Translations under genes and position numbers: made by a program
Notes under the pieces: model-generated
Databases searched by the model: none
Seen by the model: only the letters and a program-made list of their open reading frames with translations
Told to the model about the DNA's origin: nothing
Origin: Actinomadura sp. NBRC 104425
GTDB taxonomy: Bacteria; Actinomycetota; Actinomycetes; Streptosporangiales; Streptosporangiaceae
Assembly (NCBI RefSeq): GCF_030269545.1
Contig: NZ_BSTN01000020.1
Span: forward strand, 30,923-94,922
Direction: 5' to 3'
Length of the DNA: 64,000 nucleotides
Shown here: positions 45,977 to 54,899 of the stretch, piece by piece
Layout: the number at the start of each line of letters is the position of its first letter
How positions within the stretch are numbered: position 1 is the first letter of the stretch

Positions 45977-46614
45977 GTCGGCCCCGCGCACGCGGGGATG
46001 GTCCCCAGGACTGCACGGACTCGATCTCCCGCTTGCTGTCGGCCCCGCGCACGCGGGGATGGTCCCCCCCGCCACCGTGGGTGGCGATCATGCCCTTCGT
46101 CGGCCCCGCGCACGCGGGGATGGTCCCACGCGGCAACGATCACGGCACGCTCCCGTGTGGTCGGCCCCGCGCACGCGGGGATGGTCCTCTGACGCTCGCG
46201 TCCGGGTGGGGCGCCGACGGGTCGGCCCCGCGCACGCGGGGATGGTCCACGGCGTATCACACGTCGGCATGGACGTTTGCGGTCGGCCCCGCGCACGCGG
46301 GGATGGTCCCGGGGCCACGGGATCGGTGAAGGTGGCGTTCCAGTCGGCCCCGCGCACGCGGGGATGGTCCCGGGAGGGGCCTGCCGGTGCGGATGTGCAC
46401 CACGTCGGCCCCGCGCACGCGGGGATGGTCCTCTTCAAGACGACCGCACGCTGCCCCACTCCCGGTCGGCCCCGCGCACGCGGGGATGGTCCGCCCTCCA
46501 GCTCAGCGTCGTCGGCCGTGCCGGTGTCAGCCCCGCGCACGTGGGGATGGTCCCTGCAGGTCCACCAGTGCCGTGGCGAGAATGGCGTCGGCCCCGCGCA
46601 CGCGGGGATGCTCC
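45977..46614 (+). CRISPR. CRISPR array 1, type I-E-like, 11 repeats and 10 spacers
   Basis: 28-bp repeats (GTCGGCCCCGCGCAC then GCGGGGATGGTCC; self-complementary CCCCGCGCACGCGGGG core) spaced exactly 61 bp from 45977 to 46614, spacers 33 bp. The last two repeats carry changes (46526: CAG/GTG variants; 46587: ATGCTCC), as expected at the leader-distal end. The long frames that read SAPRTRGWS or RPRARGDGP repeats are artefacts of the array. No cas gene is seen on either side. Confidence 0.98.
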
Positions 46615-47500: not shown

Positions 47501-47992
47501 CTAGAACGGCGGTTCGTCGTCGGTGCCGGCGCTCGAAGACGACGCCCACGGGTCTTCGGCGGGCGTCCGGGGAGCATCGGCCGTGCCCGCCGCGTCGCCG
47601 AAGCTGCCGGTGGTGGTGTGGCGTTGGATCCTGGTCACCTTGGCAATGGCGTTGCGCAGGGACGGGCCGACGTCGAGGACATCGATCTCGTACACGGTGC
47701 GGGGAGTGCCGTCCTTGGCCTCGTAGGACCGCTGCCGCAGACGGCCGTGCACGATCACTCGATCGCCCCTCGCCAGGCCCGACTCGATCAGGTTCTCGCC
47801 GGTCTGACGCCACGCCGAGCAGGTGATGAACAGCGAATCGCCGTCCCGCCACTCGCCCGTCTGGCGGTCGAACAGGCGGGAGGTCGAGGCCACCCGGAAG
47901 GTGGCGATGGCCTGCCCGGTGGGCGTGAACCTCAACGCGGGCTCCTGCACCAGGTTGCCCACCAGGGTGATCTCGGTGTCTCCAATGGCCAT
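47501..47992 (-). CDS. ssb: Single-stranded DNA-binding protein (accessory copy)
   Basis: 163 residues from ATG at 47992 (GGAGGG 7 bases upstream). OB-fold SSB with [40 protein letters not shown] and [20 protein letters not shown], and the acidic protein-interaction tip DDEPPF at the C-terminus. The chromosomal ssb normally sits between rpsF and rpsR; this copy lies among plasmid-like genes between CRISPR arrays, so it is probably an accessory, mobile-element-derived SSB. Last intact gene of a six-gene minus-strand run. Confidence 0.95.
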
Positions 47993-48101
47993 GGCTGATC
48001 CCTCCGACAGGTACAGGTCGCCAGAGACGACAGCGACGAAAGAAGGAAGAGCCCGCCCTCGAAGGGGCGGGCCCGTGGAGCAGACGCGGTGGGCATGTTG
48101 C

Positions 48102-48482
48102 TCACTGCGCCGCATCGCGGATCGCAGGGGCGAGGGCGGGCTCGTACGGCGCCAGGACGTCGGTGCGCACCATGACGATGCGGCGCTGCTTCACCAGGCG
48201 GAGCACGGCGACCTCGCCGATGTTCATGCGGGTGGTGGTGTAGAGGTACTGGCCGACGGTTCCCTTCTCCACCCGGCGCAGCGGACGCCGATGGCGGGAC
48301 CGGGGACCGAAGTTCGGACAGGTGGCGACCACGCGCAGCAGCTGCCCGGGAACGAAGGTGGTCCGCGCTCCAGAGGTCCGTCGATGCGGTGACGAAGCGG
48401 GACGTGGAGGGGGCGGTGTGGGGCGGCCGGAAGCGGCCGAGCCGTGGGCTCCCCTGAACAGCCGCGCGCGCCGATCGTCCAT
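48102..48482 (-). CDS. Hypothetical basic protein
   Basis: About 126 residues from ATG at 48482; the start is uncertain and a later one near [18 protein letters not shown] is possible. The C-terminal 80 residues look coding ([40 protein letters not shown]); the N-terminal part is Arg/Pro/Ser-rich. No family recognised. Position between ssb and other island genes, same strand. Confidence 0.5.
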
Positions 48483-48589
48483 AGGCCGTCGCCGCGGTGG
48501 CAGGGTGCCCCGGGACGGGTTGCCGGTGCGGTGCGGGGCAGGGCTGCGGTCGCCACGAACTCGAGCGGTGCTCGTCGTGTTCGCGGAGG

Positions 48590-49090
48590 TCATGCGACTC
48601 CCCCTGAGCCGGATGTCGATGCTCCGGGCTTCCATGAGCGATCGAAGGCCGGCTCGGCGATCAGCCTGTCGGCGGCCTCGTCGACACGGCGTTCGGCGTC
48701 GTCCGGCAACGCGTCGTGGTCGCCGTGCCGGATCCTGTCCCGGCGGTCGAGCTCGGACAGCAGCTCGTCCAGCCGCGCGGCGCGGTCGGTTTCGCTCATG
48801 GCCGGGGCGAACGGGCGCAGCTCGGCCAGCGCCTGGTCCTGCCGCAGCTCGTCCTCCCGGCACAGGTCGGCGATGTGCCGGACGTGCCTGCGGGCGGCGG
48901 TGAGGCGGGCGCGGGCCAGCGCGTCCTCGTCGAGACGCCAGGCGGTGACGGTGCGGACCAGTGGAGCGGCTTCGACGCCGTACTCCAGGAACTCCGCGAC
49001 CGTCTCCAGCGCGGCGGCCTCGTCGCGGACGGGGACGATCGTGGTCTCCCCGTCACGGGTGACACGGACAGCAAACTCGGTAGCGGTCAT
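48590..49090 (-). CDS. Hypothetical helical protein
   Basis: 166 residues from ATG at 49090, with CGGAGACG before it. The N-terminus (MTATEFAVRVTRDGETTIVP) suggests a small beta unit, followed by helices with many Arg/Asp/Glu (LREDELRQDQALAELRPFAP-type, AARLDELLSELDRRDRIRHG). No enzyme motif, signal peptide or membrane segment. Family not recognised. It lies between DUF932 and ssb genes on the same strand. Confidence 0.65.
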   Translation of the reverse strand: MTATEFAVRVTRDGETTIVPVRDEAAALETVAEFLEYGVEAAPLVRTVTAWRLDEDALARARLTAARRHVRHIADLCREDELRQDQALAELRPFAPAMSETDRAARLDELLSELDRRDRIRHGDHDALPDDAERRVDEAADRLIAEPAFDRSWKPGASTSGSGGVA

Positions 49091-49231
49091 CGGGTCGTCT
49101 CCGAGAGATGTCGAGAAGGACAGGCGGCGGCCCCGTCGAGACCAGGAAGCGAAGGCGAGGTGCCGACGGGGCCGCGTGCGCCGTGCGGTGCGGCCCGGAG
49201 AGCATCCGGGCCGCACCGCACGGGACGACGG

Positions 49232-50260
49232 TCAGCGGGTGAACACGCCGTCCAGAACGCGGTCCAGGAGGGTGAGGGTGTCGCGGTCGAGCTGATCGAA
49301 CTCGCCGGTGACGGCGCGCAGCATGTTGCGCTCGGCCCGGTGCGCGCCGCGGACGGACTGCTCGTGATGGGTGTAGGTGTTGACCGCCGCGACCACCCCG
49401 TAGGCGGTTCCGCGCCAGGGGCTGACCCGCGGATCGTGCCGCCAGAGGGCGGTCAGCGCCTCGCGGCGGCGTTCGGCCAGGGTCCGGCTGCGGCCCTGCT
49501 CGGGCGGCACCGGAACGAGCTCGGCCAGGAACCGGTCCCACTGACGGTCGGTGACCTCGATCCGGCACAGGGCCCTGACCTGGGCGGCGAAGTCTTCGGC
49601 GACCCGGTGCACGATGCCCAGCGCCTCCCGCGCCTTGGTGATCCGCCCCAGGGAGTTCGACGAGTGCTTGATCTTGATCTGCCAGGCGCCGGACTCGTTC
49701 AGCGCCGCCGACAGGGTGTTGTCGCAGACCACCACGGTCGCGCCGCGCCGATAGGTCGTCCTGAGAGACCCGTCCAGCGAGGAGGCCGCCAGCAGGAACG
49801 GCCGGAAGTCCACCCCCTCGTCGGTGGTGCACGTCTCGGGCACCTCGACCTGCACCCAGGCGATTGCGCCGCCGCGCAGCAGGCCGGCCGACCCGATCGC
49901 CAGATCGTCGTCCAGCAGGGTCGCCACGTTGTCGACCAGCCACTGGGCGTAGTCGTGGATCTGGTAGCCCTGCTTGAAGACGCCCAGGATGGCGCCGGTG
50001 TCGGGCCGGATGATGGCCTTGCGCGCGGGGTCGGTGACCCGGGTGACCCCGTCCTCGGTGATGAAGGCGCTCTCCACGGTGCCCTCGACCGGCTGCCAGC
50101 CGAACAGGCGGCGGATCACGTCCCTCACCGGAATCGGGCCGGGATAGTGGTTGGGCTCCCCGCCCTGCTCGCTGGCGCGGTAATGCCAGGCGTGCCCGCG
50201 CTGGTCGGTGAACCCGATCAGCGTGTTCTGGTTCAGCCACTGCAGGCTTTCCCGTGACAT
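49232..50260 (-). CDS. DUF932 (phage/plasmid-like) protein
   Basis: 342 residues from ATG at 50260 (AAGGAAGGG upstream). Typical DUF932 features: N-terminal MSRESLQWLNQNTLIGFTDQ, ILGVFKQGYQIHDYAQWLVD, FRPFLLAASSLDGSLRTTYR with VCDNTLSAAL, IKIKHSSNSLGRITKAREAL, and the C-terminal YGVVAAVNTYTHHEQSVRGA. Members are common on phages, plasmids and integrative elements and are of unknown function. It strengthens the view that 47-52 kb is a mobile-element-derived segment. Confidence 0.88.
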   Translation of the reverse strand: MSRESLQWLNQNTLIGFTDQRGHAWHYRASEQGGEPNHYPGPIPVRDVIRRLFGWQPVEGTVESAFITEDGVTRVTDPARKAIIRPDTGAILGVFKQGYQIHDYAQWLVDNVATLLDDDLAIGSAGLLRGGAIAWVQVEVPETCTTDEGVDFRPFLLAASSLDGSLRTTYRRGATVVVCDNTLSAALNESGAWQIKIKHSSNSLGRITKAREALGIVHRVAEDFAAQVRALCRIEVTDRQWDRFLAELVPVPPEQGRSRTLAERRREALTALWRHDPRVSPWRGTAYGVVAAVNTYTHHEQSVRGAHRAERNMLRAVTGEFDQLDRDTLTLLDRVLDGVFTR

Positions 50261-50350
50261 CCGGATCCCTTCCTTTCGGTGGACATGGAAAAGCCCGCCG
50301 CCTGGGGAGACGGCGGCGGGAGGACCAAGAAGCCGATCAGCTGCGACGGT

Positions 50351-50953
50351 TCACGGCGAACCTTCGCCGTCACCCCATCCGCCGCTGAGAGCGTCCAAGA
50401 AGGCGGTGTCGCTGGGCAGTTCGGCCAGTGACCAGCCGGTGACCAGCGCGACGGGGTAGTAGGTGGACGACGCGACCCACTGCGGGCTGTCGGCGGCCCG
50501 GTGGGCGAACCGTCCCTTGCCGTGCGGGGTGGTCTGGAGACCGCGGTAGACCTCGAACGTCTCGGCGTCCAGGTCGATCACGTATCCCCACTCGGCGTAC
50601 AGCGAGTCCAGCGGGAAGTCGCCGACGTCCTCGATAACCCCCACCTCGAGCATCAGGTGGGGCCGGCCTTCGGTCCGGCGCAGCAGCATGTGCCAGTCGT
50701 CCAGCCGACCGGTGGCCGCACCAGGGCCGAGATACCTGGTCAGGCGGGCGATGTCGGCCGGGGTCGGCTCGCTGTCGGGGTCCACCACGCGCAGCGCGCG
50801 GGCGCGCTCGCGCAGGGCGTCGATGCTGTCACTGGCGGCTCGCAGCCAGCTGAGGACCTCGAGGCCGAGCCCTTGGGGATAGCTGTCCCACTGGTTGTAG
50901 GCGGTCTTCTCGGTGGCGTCGACGACGAAGGTGATGAACCCTCTGGTTCCCAC
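50351..50953 (-). CDS. Hypothetical protein of actinomycete mobile islands
   Basis: 200 residues from GTG at 50953, preceded by AAAGGAGGGCTG. Begins GTRGFITFVVDATEKTAYNQ with WDSYPQGLG, then a helical part, and GYVIDLDAETFEVYRGLQTT. No catalytic motif or membrane segment. I recall related hypothetical proteins beside DUF932 and DUF4192 genes, but cannot give a function. Same strand as, and 90 bp from, the DUF932 gene. Confidence 0.75.
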   Translation of the reverse strand: MGTRGFITFVVDATEKTAYNQWDSYPQGLGLEVLSWLRAASDSIDALRERARALRVVDPDSEPTPADIARLTRYLGPGAATGRLDDWHMLLRRTEGRPHLMLEVGVIEDVGDFPLDSLYAEWGYVIDLDAETFEVYRGLQTTPHGKGRFAHRAADSPQWVASSTYYPVALVTGWSLAELPSDTAFLDALSGGWGDGEGSP

Positions 50954-51028
50954 CAGCCCTCCTTTCCGCGTAGTGAGTCGACGTAGTGGTGAGGGCCGCC
51001 GCGACCTGCGAGGTTCACGGCGGCCGGG

Positions 51029-52078
51029 TCAGTTGGCGGGGCGGTTGTCGGTGGCGGCGTACATGTCGGCCAGCTCCTCCGGTGTCATCCGGAGGCGGAC
51101 CGCGTCCGGGGAGACGCCAGCGGCCAGCACGTCGCGCAGCAGAGCGGCCATGGAATAGCCGGGGTCGGCGGCGCGCGCACGATCCAGGGCGACGTTGGCC
51201 AACGCGCCGTCCCCGCTGATGTAGGCCGCGTACGCCAGCAGGCTGGCCGGTGCGGCCGCGTACGGCTCCTCGACCCGGCGCAGCACGTCCCGCCAGAAGT
51301 CCACGTGGCGCAGCAGCACCGACCTGTCATCGTCGTCGATGCGGATCCACGCCTCGTCTCGCACCCGCAGGCAGGTCAGCAGGACGCCGAGCCGGGCGAC
51401 CTCCGAGTCGCTCGGCGCCGGCCCCTGGGCGCGCACTCGTTCGGCCAGCTCGGTCACCAGCGGGATCCCCTCGGTGATCATGCGGTGGCGGGTCTCGGCA
51501 GGGGCACTGCGGGACGCGCGCAGATACCGCTGCTCCCAGACGGCGGTGGCCTGCCGCACGGCCTGGCGGGCAGGGCCGGTCACCGCGGCGACCGACGCGG
51601 CCAGCGCGGCCCGGTCGGGAAAGGCCGCCAGGCCGCGGGTGACGGCGTCCACCGCCGCAGCGCTGGTCGACGGGTCATAGGGGCGGCCCTCGGGCGGGCA
51701 GCATCCGCCGGTGCAGGTGAGGGACCACCACCGTCCCTCGTGCACGCGAAACGCGTCGATGACCTCCACACCGCAGGCGGACACCAGTCCGGTGACCGCC
51801 GTGGCGACCGGAACGACGCGTTCGCTGGGCCCGTACCCGACCAGCAGCGCCCGGGCGATCCGGTTACGTTGCGCAAGGCGGGCCAAGTGCTCGGCCACCG
51901 CATCGACGGTGTCCTCGTCGCTCGCGGCGGGCAGGTCGACGCGGTATGCCACGGTGCGCTGAAAGCCCGTTCCGACCATCACCAGGTCTTCGGAGGGGAC
52001 GAAACCGAGGAGGTAGGGCACCAGGGCGATGGCGTCCGCGGCCGTCCGCACGACGATGGGTGTCGAGGACAGGGGCAT
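51029..52078 (-). CDS. DUF4192 family protein
   Basis: 349 residues from ATG at 52078, with AAGGAGCG before it; the frame opens further upstream into the CRISPR leader without support. Family marks: IVVRTAADAIALVPYLLGFV with PSEDLVMVG at the start, a central WWSLTCTGGCCPPEG Cys-containing loop, and the C-terminal YAAAPASLLAYAAYISGDGA then ANVALDRARAADPGYSMAAL. DUF4192 proteins are widespread in actinobacteria, on chromosomes and large plasmids; function unknown. First gene of the minus-strand run between arrays 1 and 2. Confidence 0.88.
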   Translation of the reverse strand: MPLSSTPIVVRTAADAIALVPYLLGFVPSEDLVMVGTGFQRTVAYRVDLPAASDEDTVDAVAEHLARLAQRNRIARALLVGYGPSERVVPVATAVTGLVSACGVEVIDAFRVHEGRWWSLTCTGGCCPPEGRPYDPSTSAAAVDAVTRGLAAFPDRAALAASVAAVTGPARQAVRQATAVWEQRYLRASRSAPAETRHRMITEGIPLVTELAERVRAQGPAPSDSEVARLGVLLTCLRVRDEAWIRIDDDDRSVLLRHVDFWRDVLRRVEEPYAAAPASLLAYAAYISGDGALANVALDRARAADPGYSMAALLRDVLAAGVSPDAVRLRMTPEELADMYAATDNRPAN

Positions 52079-52369: not shown

Positions 52370-52824
52370 GTCGGCCCCGCGCACGCGGGGATGGTCCCCA
52401 CGGCCTGCCCGACGAGCTGGGCGCCAGAGTGTCGGCCCCGCGCACGCGGGGATGGTCCGCCTTACCGAGACTGATGGTCTTAACGATTTTCGTCGGCCCC
52501 GCGCACGCGGGGATGGTCCCCAGGTCATCCCTGGTGAGCACATCGCCCGTGATGTCGGCCCCGCACACGCGGGGATGGTCCCCTGATCGTGAACTCGGGC
52601 GAGGCGGCCACCCAGTCGGCCCCGCGCACGCGGGGATGGTCCCTGCTGGCGTTCGTCCGGCGGACGCTCGGCGCCGTCGGCCCCTCGCACGCGGGGATGG
52701 TCCCGTGCTCGGCGCGACGTGCGCGCTCGGTGCGGGTCGGCCCCGCGCACGCGGGGATGGTCCTCGTGGCAGTCCCGTGCGCTGTGGGCGCTGATGGTCG
52801 ACCCCGCGCACGCGGAGACGGTTA
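52370..52824 (+). CRISPR. CRISPR array 2, 8 repeats and 7 spacers
   Basis: Repeats as in array 1, starting at 52370, 52431, 52492, 52554, 52615, 52676, 52736 and 52797. Two spacers deviate in length (34 and 32 bp). Repeats 4 (CCGCACACG) and 6 (CCCCTCGCACG) carry single changes and the last (GTCGACCCCGCGCAC, GCGGAGACGGTTA) is strongly degenerate, marking the leader-distal end. Confidence 0.97.
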
Positions 52825-52944
52825 CCGCAGCGGTGGGAGTTGACCGTTGGTTGGCCCTTCTACGGTCGGCAAGAGGCCTGAGGGCTCTGCGTGATCGTCG
52901 CGACCACGGTCACGTGCACGTCCTCCTTATCTGCGCTGTCGGGA

Positions 52945-53076
52945 GAGGGTGGCTTCCTCTCCCGGTTCGGCGGAAGCCCGCCTCGCCGGGGCGGCGAACC
53001 GCAACCCCCCGCGGGTTGCGGTTCGCGCCACGGTGAGGCAAGCTGCGCCGCCGGGTTGAGAGAGGAAGCCACCCTC
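52945..53076. repeat. Nested inverted repeats, about 130 bp
   Basis: Outer arms GAGGGTGGCTTCCTCTC (52945-52961) and the exact complement (53060-53076). Inside, a perfect 14-bp stem (52994-53007 with 53013-53026) with a 5-base loop. It lies between the end of array 2 and the small gene at 53212. It could be a structured RNA, a miniature element or a strong terminator for the minus-strand operon that ends at 53212. Confidence 0.8.
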
Positions 53077-53211
53077 CTCGCAGGCAGCCGAGACCAGGAT
53101 CTGGACGGCGAGTTGCTCTCTAGGCAGCTCACCGTCGAGCAGCACCGTGTCGGCGGGCAGTTTGTCGACCGTTGCCGCACAGTGGGTTCCGGATGCGATG
53201 TGATGAGTCGG

Positions 53212-53424
53212 CTACGCGGAACGGCGTTCTTCCAGCGCCCACTTGCGGCGCCACTTGGCGGCGATGGCCGCGTTCTCCTCGGGGGTGCCGTTGAGCTCTT
53301 CGTCCACGACGGCGTCGGCGCGCAAGTCCGCGTAACGCGGATCGTCCGGGGTGATCTCGGAGGCGCCGCATCCGGCGTCGTGCGGCAGCAGCAACCGTCC
53401 GCCCTTGAGCACCGCCTGCGCCAT
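53212..53424 (-). CDS. Small acidic/basic protein, second gene of a metalloprotease operon
   Basis: 70 residues from ATG at 53424, sharing one base with the stop codon of the upstream gene (TGATG), so translation is coupled. Sequence begins AQAVLKGGRLLLPHDAGCGA, contains TPDDPRYADLRADAVVDEEL and ends in a basic helix (AAIAAKWRRKWALEERRSA). No recognised family, no membrane segment. Its size and coupling to an HExxH protein suggest a dedicated partner (substrate, inhibitor or regulator), which is inference. Confidence 0.7.
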   Translation of the reverse strand: MAQAVLKGGRLLLPHDAGCGASEITPDDPRYADLRADAVVDEELNGTPEENAAIAAKWRRKWALEERRSA

Positions 53425-54074
53425 CACACCTCCAGCCCGAAGTGCCTCACATAGTACCTGGCGACGATTTCGGCGACCGGCTCGTGGCCGCTCAGAGTCC
53501 GGATGAGCCTGGGGAACTGCCCGGTGATGACCAGCGCCCAGGCCTCCGCCCACCACTCCAGCGGATCGAGCCAGCGGTCCACGATCAGCAGCGGCCGGCA
53601 GCGAAACATGATCGTCTCCCACTCGGCGGACTCGGCCGCTCGGCGACGGCGCTCCATGACGTGGCCGATCTCATGATCGACAAGGGAGGCGCTCACATGG
53701 TCGCCGGTGCCGACGGCCATGGTGCGGGTTTCCCAGTCGGTCACGCCCGGCACCTGGTCCCACGTCGTGCTCGTCCCCGGACGGACGGGCTGCCCGGCGA
53801 GGCGACCGAAATGGTCCAGTCCTGGGACAGGGCCGATCCCGACCCACAGCCCACCGGTGAGCGCCTCGGCGACCTGCGAGGCGATCGGGCCGGGCAGTGC
53901 CGCGAGCCGATCGATCGCCGCGATCACCTCGTCGGGTGGATTGCCGCGGGCCGGATCCCACTGCCGGCGCACGACCCGCTCCAAAACCCCGAGGTGACGA
54001 CGCCCGTCCCTGGGCAGCAGGTCGACGTCGGCAGGGTGCGGGTCACACCAGTACGGCTCATGGGGCGTGTCCAT
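53424..54074 (-). CDS. Putative zinc metallopeptidase (HEIGH motif)
   Basis: 216 residues from ATG at 54074, chosen because GAGG lies 5 bases upstream and the conserved-looking part begins there; the frame continues into the CRISPR leader. The only recognisable motif is HEIGH (in LVDHEIGHVMERRR, near residue 140), the HExxH zinc-binding signature of zincins. A second half with LDPLEWWAEAWALVITGQFP may supply the third ligand (Glu or His). No signal peptide, so likely cytoplasmic. Family not identified. It is coupled to a 70-residue gene and lies between CRISPR arrays 2 and 3, divergent from array 3. Confidence 0.7.
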   Translation of the reverse strand: MDTPHEPYWCDPHPADVDLLPRDGRRHLGVLERVVRRQWDPARGNPPDEVIAAIDRLAALPGPIASQVAEALTGGLWVGIGPVPGLDHFGRLAGQPVRPGTSTTWDQVPGVTDWETRTMAVGTGDHVSASLVDHEIGHVMERRRRAAESAEWETIMFRCRPLLIVDRWLDPLEWWAEAWALVITGQFPRLIRTLSGHEPVAEIVARYYVRHFGLEV

Positions 54075-54139
54075 CGCCGCCTCATGCTGCCAGAACTGCG
54101 ACGCGGTGGTACCTGCGAGGCTGCCGCCCCGGCCGAGGG

Positions 54140-54200
54140 TTGGCAAATCCAACTAAATGAAAACTGAGCTTCGCCGATATAGACTCCCAGGTCAGCAAGT
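54140..54200 (+). promoter_or_regulatory. CRISPR leader of array 3
   Basis: About 60 bp (GGCAAATCCAACTAAATGAAA ... GGTCAGCAAGT without the long dots part) is a diverged version of the leader core before arrays 1 and 2. The longer 180-bp homology of leaders 1 and 2 is absent. It lies within the 126 bases upstream of the divergent metallopeptidase gene, so the two promoters probably overlap. Confidence 0.75.
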
Positions 54201-54899
54201 GTCGGCCCCGCGCACGCGGGGATGGTCCGGTCCCTCTCGCCAACGTGTGGGCCGACAGCGAGTCGGCCCCGCGCACGCGGGGATGGTCCGTCGGTGCGCC
54301 GGTACGTCGATGAGCTGGTGAAGTCGGCCCCGCGCACGCGGGGATGGTCCGACCGTCGACATGAGCGTGTTCGTCGCGCCGTAGTCGGCCCCGCGCACGC
54401 GGGGATGGTCCCTGTACCGGCAGGGCCGGGTAGCGTGGCGTGACGTCGGCCCCGCGCACGCGGGGATGGTCCCATCCAGACCGGCGTCGCATGCTGGGTG
54501 CCGATGTCGGCCCCGCGCACGCGGGGATGGTCCCGTGTGCTGGATCGTCTCGGTCTCACGCCTGAGGTCGGCCCCGCGCACGCGGGGATGGTCCTCGAGC
54601 TGACGGACTCGCTCAGGAGGGACGGCTGTCGGCCCCGCGCACGCGGGGATGGTCCCCGGACCGGCGGCCGCAGACGTCACCAGCGTCGGTCGGCCCCGCG
54701 CACGCGGGGATGGTCCTGGCCGCGCTACTGGTACCAGGTCCAGGAGTACGTCGGCCCCGCGCACGCGGGGATGGTCCCGAGTACATGGACTACATGAACC
54801 ACCACTACCCGTCGGCCCCGCGCACGCGGGGATGATCCGCGGGTCGAACGCCGCTGGGCCGGGCTGGCCGAGTCGGCCCCGCGCACGCGGGGATGGTTT
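54201..54899 (+). CRISPR. CRISPR array 3, 12 repeats and 11 spacers
   Basis: Twelve repeats at exact 61-bp steps from 54201 to 54872, 28 bp each, spacers all 33 bp. Ten repeats are identical; the eleventh ends GATGATCC and the twelfth GATGGTTT, marking the leader-distal end. It is the longest and most regular of the three arrays and has the same orientation as the others. Confidence 0.98.

What the first reader, a model, noticed from the sequence alone, without database searches (positions are those of the whole stretch)
52825..54200. Coupled HExxH metallopeptidase and 70-residue partner wedged between two CRISPR arrays
Two minus-strand genes overlap by one base (TGATG). The first has a zincin HEIGH motif and no family I recognise; the second is a small protein of unknown family. 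The pair fills the space between arrays 2 and 3, and its promoter must overlap the array 3 leader. Protease-plus-small-partner operons occur in toxin-antitoxin and phage-defence systems (for example ImmA/IrrE types), so this could be an undescribed defence or regulatory module.
Basis: partly seen in the sequence, partly recalled or inferred. Interest (0 to 1): 0.62.

Follow-up and report, generated by a model that had tools for sequence, protein, structure and literature searches.

The report
Metallopeptidase and small partner gene pair
Two overlapping genes between CRISPR arrays encode a lethal-factor-fold zinc peptidase and its constant small partner, a spare copy of a gene pair that most related bacteria keep elsewhere in the genome; the CRISPR arrays are probably only neighbours.

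Summary
In detail: a 216-aa HEIGH protein (P1, 53424-54074 minus) and a 70-aa protein (P2, 53212-53424 minus) overlap by one base (TGATG) between CRISPR arrays 2 and 3.

P1 is a gluzincin of the Pro-Pro endopeptidase/anthrax-lethal-factor (ATLF) fold: AlphaFold2 pTM 0.81, Foldseek E 1.1e-6 to PPEP-3, structural Z 16.7 to PPEP-2. E173 is invariant and fits as third zinc ligand. The catalytic Tyr of PPEPs is not at its usual place, and no signal peptide is evident.

The pair recurs: a P2-type gene directly follows every intact P1 gene whose downstream flank was read (46 of 46). In 28 of 28 congeners a longer P1 paralogue with its own P2 relative lies near bldC. P1-family genes are in 189 of 249 genomes of the order.

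CRISPR linkage is probably incidental: 6 of 8 accessory pairs have no array nearby. Here three other array leaders carry broken copies of the P1 5' end, so array duplication dragged it along.

Phages carry relatives, some fused to MuF head proteins, each followed by a small overlapping ORF, as in published MuF toxin-immunity modules. Best guess: P2 restrains a cytosolic peptidase P1. No experiment tests this.

The parts
53424..54074 (-). P1: 216-aa ATLF/PPEP-fold gluzincin gene (stop included)
53212..53424 (-). P2: 70-aa constant small partner gene, start codon overlaps P1 stop by one base (TGATG)
53661..53675 (-). HEIGH zinc motif (H134-H138)
53556..53558 (-). codon of E173, putative third zinc ligand, invariant in 14 of 14
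54083..54095 (-). TTCTGGCAGCATG, exact or in variant form 5-11 nt before accessory P1 start codons; role unknown
53916..54228 (.). P1 5' end plus array 3 leader and first repeat, duplicated at other CRISPR arrays of the genome
54140..54200 (+). leader core of array 3 (shared by 17 places in the genome)
54201..54899 (+). CRISPR array 3, 12 repeats
52370..52824 (+). CRISPR array 2, 8 repeats
52945..53076 (.). inverted-repeat element (17-bp perfect arms) 3' of P2, single copy in the genome

Best explanation
P1-P2 is an accessory copy of a two-gene unit: a cytosolic zinc peptidase of the ATLF/PPEP fold, translated together with a small dedicated partner. Shown by computation: the P1 fold and the HExxH...E zinc site; the constant P1-P2 gene order; purifying selection against the nearest relatives; a homologous unit near bldC across the genus and in other genera; phage relatives, some MuF-fused, followed by a small overlapping ORF; CRISPR adjacency peculiar to this locus and one relative. 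Inferred: P2 binds P1 and restrains it (immunity or antidote-like), the TGATG coupling giving stoichiometric synthesis, and P1 cleaves a particular intracellular protein when released. The substrate is unknown. The CRISPR arrays play no part in the mechanism.
For: Fold: pLDDT 83, pTM 0.81; Foldseek PPEP-3 9g0j E 1.1e-6; Z 16.7, rmsd 2.7, 170 aligned to 6fpc; sequence profile, 9g0j E 1.9e-6. Zinc site. Pairing: 8 of 8 accessory loci, 28 of 28 congeneric core loci (4 of these 28 also fed the profile), 10 of 10 further loci. Homology of the two P2 kinds: hhalign probability 94, E 1.1e-7; the accessory-only P2 profile, with no core sequence in it, also hits 18 of those 28 core loci. BldC within the locus in 28 of 28. 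Phage gene order; Mx4 p46 has Phage_Mu_F and ATLF above Pfam cut-offs. [quoted passage not shown] Asymmetry: no intact P1 without P2 in 46 read, but 7 of 29 P2-profile loci have no P1 match beside them.
Against: No experiment. The catalytic Tyr that PPEPs carry seven residues before the third ligand is absent there in 14 of 14, so activity is uncertain. No delivery domain and no known immunity family. Phage partner proteins are not detectably homologous to P2 (hhalign probability 0.1 to 0.7), apart from a marginal Mx4 p47 match (11.3 bits). The bldC-linked paralogue in most of the order looks like a housekeeping or developmental gene rather than a toxin. The asymmetry is thin: of the seven P1-less P2 loci, L062 ends about 270 bp past P2, and of the six others that I ran through my gene caller only L064 gave a called P2 gene.
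Confidence: 0.45

Rival explanations
1. P2 is an adaptor, chaperone or activator (or substrate) of a regulated cytosolic peptidase; the core pair serves development or envelope biogenesis next to bldC and ccsB, and the accessory pair is a spare copy.
For: Core pair near BldC in 28 of 28 and CcsB in 25 of 28 congeners, P1 family in 189 of 249 genomes of the order; constant pairing fits any obligate complex.
Against: Accessory pairs turn over, decay to fragments and lie among unrelated genes; P2 sometimes occurs without P1; MuF-fused phage relatives suggest a conflict origin. P2 has no Pro-Pro motif, which argues against a PPEP-type substrate (by reading).
Confidence: 0.35
2. P1 is a catalytically weak or dead zinc-site protein that works by binding, with P2 completing its surface.
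For: No Tyr at the PPEP oxyanion position in 14 of 14; the loop there is shorter than in PPEP-3 in the profile alignment and of another length in core members.
Against: Both histidines, the HExxH glutamate and E173 are invariant, which is hard to explain without zinc chemistry; other aromatic residues could take the Tyr role.
Confidence: 0.12
3. One reading: a defence or regulatory module functionally tied to the CRISPR arrays.
For: Lies between arrays; the 126 bp before the P1 ATG contain the array leader; the MAG DX1.bin85 locus L040 also has a leader and repeat about 350 bp past P2.
Against: No array found in 6 of 8 accessory loci (flanks of L041 and L042 are only about 1.7 kb on one side); geometry differs in L040; upstream of P1 in other loci there is no leader; no PADLOC match; 13 of 17 leaders in the genome have no P1 match beside them in the protein search.
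Confidence: 0.06

Closest known systems
Pro-Pro endopeptidases (PPEP-1, PPEP-2, PPEP-3; ATLF-like domain)
   Same: Overall fold over 170-187 residues, HExxH helix and downstream third-ligand Glu helix.
   Different: About 21% identity; no Tyr at third ligand minus 7; no hydrophobic N-terminal segment whereas PPEPs are extracellular (PMC12828418, passages); constant small partner gene; Pro-Pro specificity untested.
MuF polymorphic toxins of phages with ATLF metallopeptidase domain and downstream small ORF
   Same: Same peptidase family (profile hits) and same order: peptidase gene then small overlapping ORF.
   Different: P1 has no MuF or other delivery domain; the phage partner family shows no detectable homology to P2, Mx4 p47 being marginal.
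Tox-ALFMetallopeptidase of polymorphic toxin systems (Zhang et al. 2012, PMC3482391)
   Same: Anthrax-lethal-factor-like HExxH domain, listed for Actinobacteria among others (passages).
   Different: Those are domains of exported toxins, partner Imm-SuFu; P2 matches no Pfam family.
Mycobacteriophage 'metalloprotease/peptidase' gene 2 with gene 3
   Same: Peptidase of the same family, small gene overlapping by 1 or 4 nt.
   Different: Gly-rich N-terminus in Landor and Trooper; gene 3 protein not detectably related to P2.
ImmA/IrrE (M78) modules (features recalled)
   Same: HExxH peptidase with small partner.
   Different: Different fold match and no XRE-type partner recognised.

Membership tests
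ATLF/PPEP-like gluzincin (MEROPS M34-like; family label recalled) | Fold of PPEP/lethal factor catalytic domain | tested here: met
   Foldseek E 1.1e-6, prob 1.00; Z 16.7 over 170 residues
ATLF/PPEP-like gluzincin (MEROPS M34-like; family label recalled) | HExxH plus downstream Glu ligand | tested here: met
   H134, E135, H138, E173 invariant in 14 of 14; on two helices of the model; ligand geometry not measured
ATLF/PPEP-like gluzincin (MEROPS M34-like; family label recalled) | Pfam ATLF gathering score | tested here: not met
   13 bits against 27.4; 11 of 14 members hit, best E 0.014
Pro-Pro endopeptidase | Oxyanion Tyr seven residues before the third ligand | tested here: not met
   D, E, Q, P or G there in 14 of 14; another residue could substitute
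Pro-Pro endopeptidase | Extracellular | tested here: not met
   No hydrophobic N-terminal stretch (hydropathy only)
Pro-Pro endopeptidase | Cleaves between prolines | not testable with these tools
   needs an assay
MuF polymorphic toxin | MuF domain fused to the toxin domain | tested here: not met
   P0001 has no Phage_Mu_F hit; Mx4 p46 does
MuF polymorphic toxin | Small ORF directly downstream | tested here: met
   46 of 46 intact P1 genes read
ImmA/IrrE (Peptidase_M78) | M78 domain | tested here: not met
   no M78 hit for P0001 at E up to 1
Known anti-phage defence system | PADLOC model match | tested here: not met
   0 of 10 proteins incl. P1, P2, core pair
CRISPR-associated accessory module | Recurrent linkage to arrays or cas genes | tested here: not met
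   2 of 8 accessory loci near a repeat; some flanks short

The most novel reading that the evidence does not exclude
P1-P2 is a chromosomal peptidase-antidote module that shares descent with metallopeptidase effectors packed in phage heads; stray P2 genes in bacteria, and stray partner genes such as BeeGee gp36 near a phage integrase gene, act as immunity against such effectors, while the bldC-linked copy has been tamed into a developmental peptidase switch of the order.
Probability: 0.17. Interest if true: 0.78.

Novelty: new variant of a known kind. Interest (0 to 1): 0.5.

Why it matters
It gives a fold and a constant partner to a protein pair whose window copies reach no Pfam, NCBIfam, PADLOC or PHROGs family, shows that its closest relative is a conserved neighbour of the developmental regulator gene bldC across much of an order of actinomycetes, and ties it to phage peptidases. 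It makes a direct test possible: does the small protein inhibit, activate or feed the peptidase? It also warns that proximity to CRISPR arrays can arise by array duplication alone.

Tried and rejected
CRISPR-linked module: rejected as main reading after 6 of 8 accessory loci showed no array and P1 5' fragments were found beside three other leaders of the genome. Long-leader idea (P1 5' codons are part of a functional leader): not favoured, since most leaders lack that stretch. ImmA/IrrE: rejected. P2 as Pro-Pro substrate: P2 of the window has no Pro-Pro. Homology of phage partner genes to P2: looked for with three profile comparisons and with shuffles, not found, except Mx4 p47 at 11.3 bits (1 of 5000 shuffles as high; best unrelated of 78 small genes, 14 of them P2s, 4.2 bits). 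Viral-contig scans for relatives: three, none found. Viral structure library: no match at E 0.001 or better; the mycobacteriophage Pharaoh metalloprotease appears at E 0.77 with TM 0.60. P2 model (pLDDT 86.9, pTM 0.57): no PDB fold match (best E 2.9). Promoter, terminator and Rfam scans of the locus: nothing. Conserved motif TTCTGGCAGCATG: 3 exact copies in the genome, all before P1 5' ends; with up to one mismatch 6 against 4 for the reversed control, so only the exact copies and their position count. Plasmid search: one partial match, in a Nonomuraea record. Literature: searches (listings) turned up no paper on this pair or on a bldC-linked peptidase; PMC5576092, PMC3482391, PMC12828418 and PMC13118837 were seen as passages only, PMC5512222 as passages and section 8. 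Loose end: the partner hit in L027 starts 336 nt before the computed P1 end and was not looked into.

Full report
OBSERVATION. The two genes are at the stated place and overlap as described. P1 (216 aa) has HEIGH at residues 134-138. The pair lies between array 2 (52370-52824) and array 3 (54201-54899). The window is part of contig C20 of an unnamed 7.5-Mb genome; named relatives found by sequence are mostly Actinomadura, so Actinomadura is likely, by inference.

WHAT P1 IS. Pfam gives only ATLF below cut-off (11 of 14 family members hit it, best E 0.014). A profile of 14 homologues finds Pro-Pro endopeptidases in the PDB, best E 1.9e-6. The AlphaFold2 model (pLDDT 83.1, pTM 0.81) matches PPEP-3 at Foldseek E 1.1e-6 and PPEP-2 at Z 16.7 over 170 residues; lethal factor domains follow at Z about 13. 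H134, E135, H138 and E173 are invariant in 14 of 14. HEIGH is in helix 129-144 and E173 in helix 171-183. PPEP-3 has an oxyanion Tyr seven residues before its third ligand (Tyr190/Glu197; PMC12828418, passages); P1 and its core paralogues have D, E, Q, P or G there in 14 of 14. No hydrophobic N-terminal segment was seen. So the fold and zinc site are those of the family; membership among Pro-Pro endopeptidases proper is not met on two features, and activity is unproven.

THE PAIR RECURS. Seven other accessory loci (L040-L046) carry P1 at 50-83% identity followed at once by P2 at 41-81%. A longer paralogue (open frames mostly 310-380 aa, with an extra N-terminal part) is present in G000 itself and in all 35 congeners searched. 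Downstream of it lies a small gene that aligns with P2 by profile comparison (probability 94, E 1.1e-7). With a profile of core partners this gene is found in 28 of 28 congeneric loci L010-L037; four of the 28 also fed the profile. The accessory-only profile hits 18 of these 28. BldC is encoded within the same fetched stretch (at most 3.7 kb) in 28 of 28 and CcsB in 25 of 28. In ten loci of other genera chosen by P1 alone the partner is again next to it, 10 of 10 (an eleventh, L139, is the core copy of G000 already seen), including three (L137, L138, L140) without a close BldC. Order-wide, P1-family matches occur in 189 of 249 genomes and accessory-P2 profile matches in 36 of 249. Of 29 loci fetched for those P2 matches (of 42 matches listed), 22 have a P1 match beside P2, in a few cases partial or split, and 7 have none; several of the 7 are weak or near a contig end. 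In a class-wide sample 10 of 197 genomes matched, all of the window's own family.

SELECTION. Against the nearest relative dN/dS is 0.13 for P1 and 0.15 for P2; among the accessory pairs printed P2 reaches 0.97 and P1 0.73.

CRISPR. The leader core is found at 17 places and one type I-E Cse1 gene lies on contig C38. P1 5' ends lie beside four of these leaders: the intact gene here, and broken pieces at C36 (99.7% over 311 nt), C20:98.9k (91% over 314 nt) and C48 (82% over 329 nt). A fifth leader (C32:36289) shares 119 nt with this group. Arrays were thus copied with a stretch of the neighbouring gene. Upstream of P1 in the other species there is no leader, and six of eight accessory loci show no array. 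In MAG DX1.bin85 (L040) a leader with a repeat lies about 350 bp past P2, in another geometry. Adjacency is therefore best read as circumstance, with the caveat of short flanks in L041 and L042.

PHAGE RELATIVES. The core paralogue matches 19 phage records; the Landor protein then matches 105. In all 13 phage loci read the peptidase gene is followed by a small ORF overlapping by 1 or 4 nt; the peptidase domain was checked by profile in four of them, by tblastn in eight more, and not in Phishy. In Mx4 the peptidase is fused to a MuF head protein; Nyceirae gp08 and Phishy gp7, annotated as a head maturation protease and a MuF-like minor capsid protein, have the same place after the portal gene. 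MuF toxins with metallopeptidase domains and small downstream ORFs taken for immunity genes are described (PMC5576092, passages), and lethal-factor-like domains are listed as polymorphic toxins (PMC3482391, passages). The phage partner proteins of Gordonia and Mycobacterium phages form one family (Nyceirae gp09 to Keziacharles14 gp3, E 3e-3; aligned) but do not match P2. The shared thing is gene order, not proven partner homology.

MECHANISM. P1 is most likely a cytosolic zinc peptidase and P2 its stoichiometric partner made by coupled translation. The gene order of phage effectors with putative immunity genes, and the absence of any intact P1 without P2 in 46 read, favour P2 as restraint; conservation next to bldC fits a regulated cellular peptidase nearly as well. 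I give the restraint model 0.45 and the adaptor or activator model 0.35. None of this was tested at the bench.

NOVELTY. Fold and general arrangement are known kinds; a stand-alone pair without a delivery domain, with an unnamed partner family and a widespread bldC-linked paralogue, was not met in my literature searches, which cover only open papers.

Noticed in passing
genome G000: C20, C32, C36, C38, C48; window 45977-46614, 52370-52824, 54201-54899: About 17 CRISPR leader copies scattered over several contigs with one Cse1 gene: a much multiplied set of type I-E arrays, some copied together with flanking gene pieces.
   Followed up: partly
window 52945-53076: 17-bp perfect inverted repeat about 100 bp apart, 3' of P2; single copy in the genome.
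   Followed up: partly
window 47501-52078; L046 3472-9219: Single-strand binding protein, TIGR03299/DUF932 and DUF4192 genes between arrays 1 and 2; L046 has a protein resembling the DUF4192 one (by eye) about 5 kb from its P1-P2 pair.
   Followed up: no
L127 2501-2761 (Gordonia phage BeeGee gp36): A stand-alone relative (84% identity) of the Nyceirae partner protein gp09, without a peptidase gene beside it, about 2 kb before a tyrosine integrase gene and near an HTH gene.
   Followed up: partly
window 54083-54095; upstream of P1 in L040-L046: TTCTGGCAGCATG or variants stand 5-11 nt before accessory P1 start codons; could be promoter, operator or ribosome-site related.
   Followed up: partly
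L044 12226-12636: Second, broken P1 copy in the Thermomonospora echinospora locus, near a called gene that looks like a tyrosine recombinase (by eye).
   Followed up: no
L049 9563-10747, L050 7960-8250 and 16053-17261: Methyltransferase-like genes with VPRHLF/VPRHRF motifs beside three of the CRISPR arrays (lanthipeptide-type methyltransferase is my recollection, not a search result).
   Followed up: no
L062 1501-1695, L038 1501-1692: P2 left with only a short degenerate end of P1 before the contig end (read in L038), a decayed pair.
   Followed up: partly
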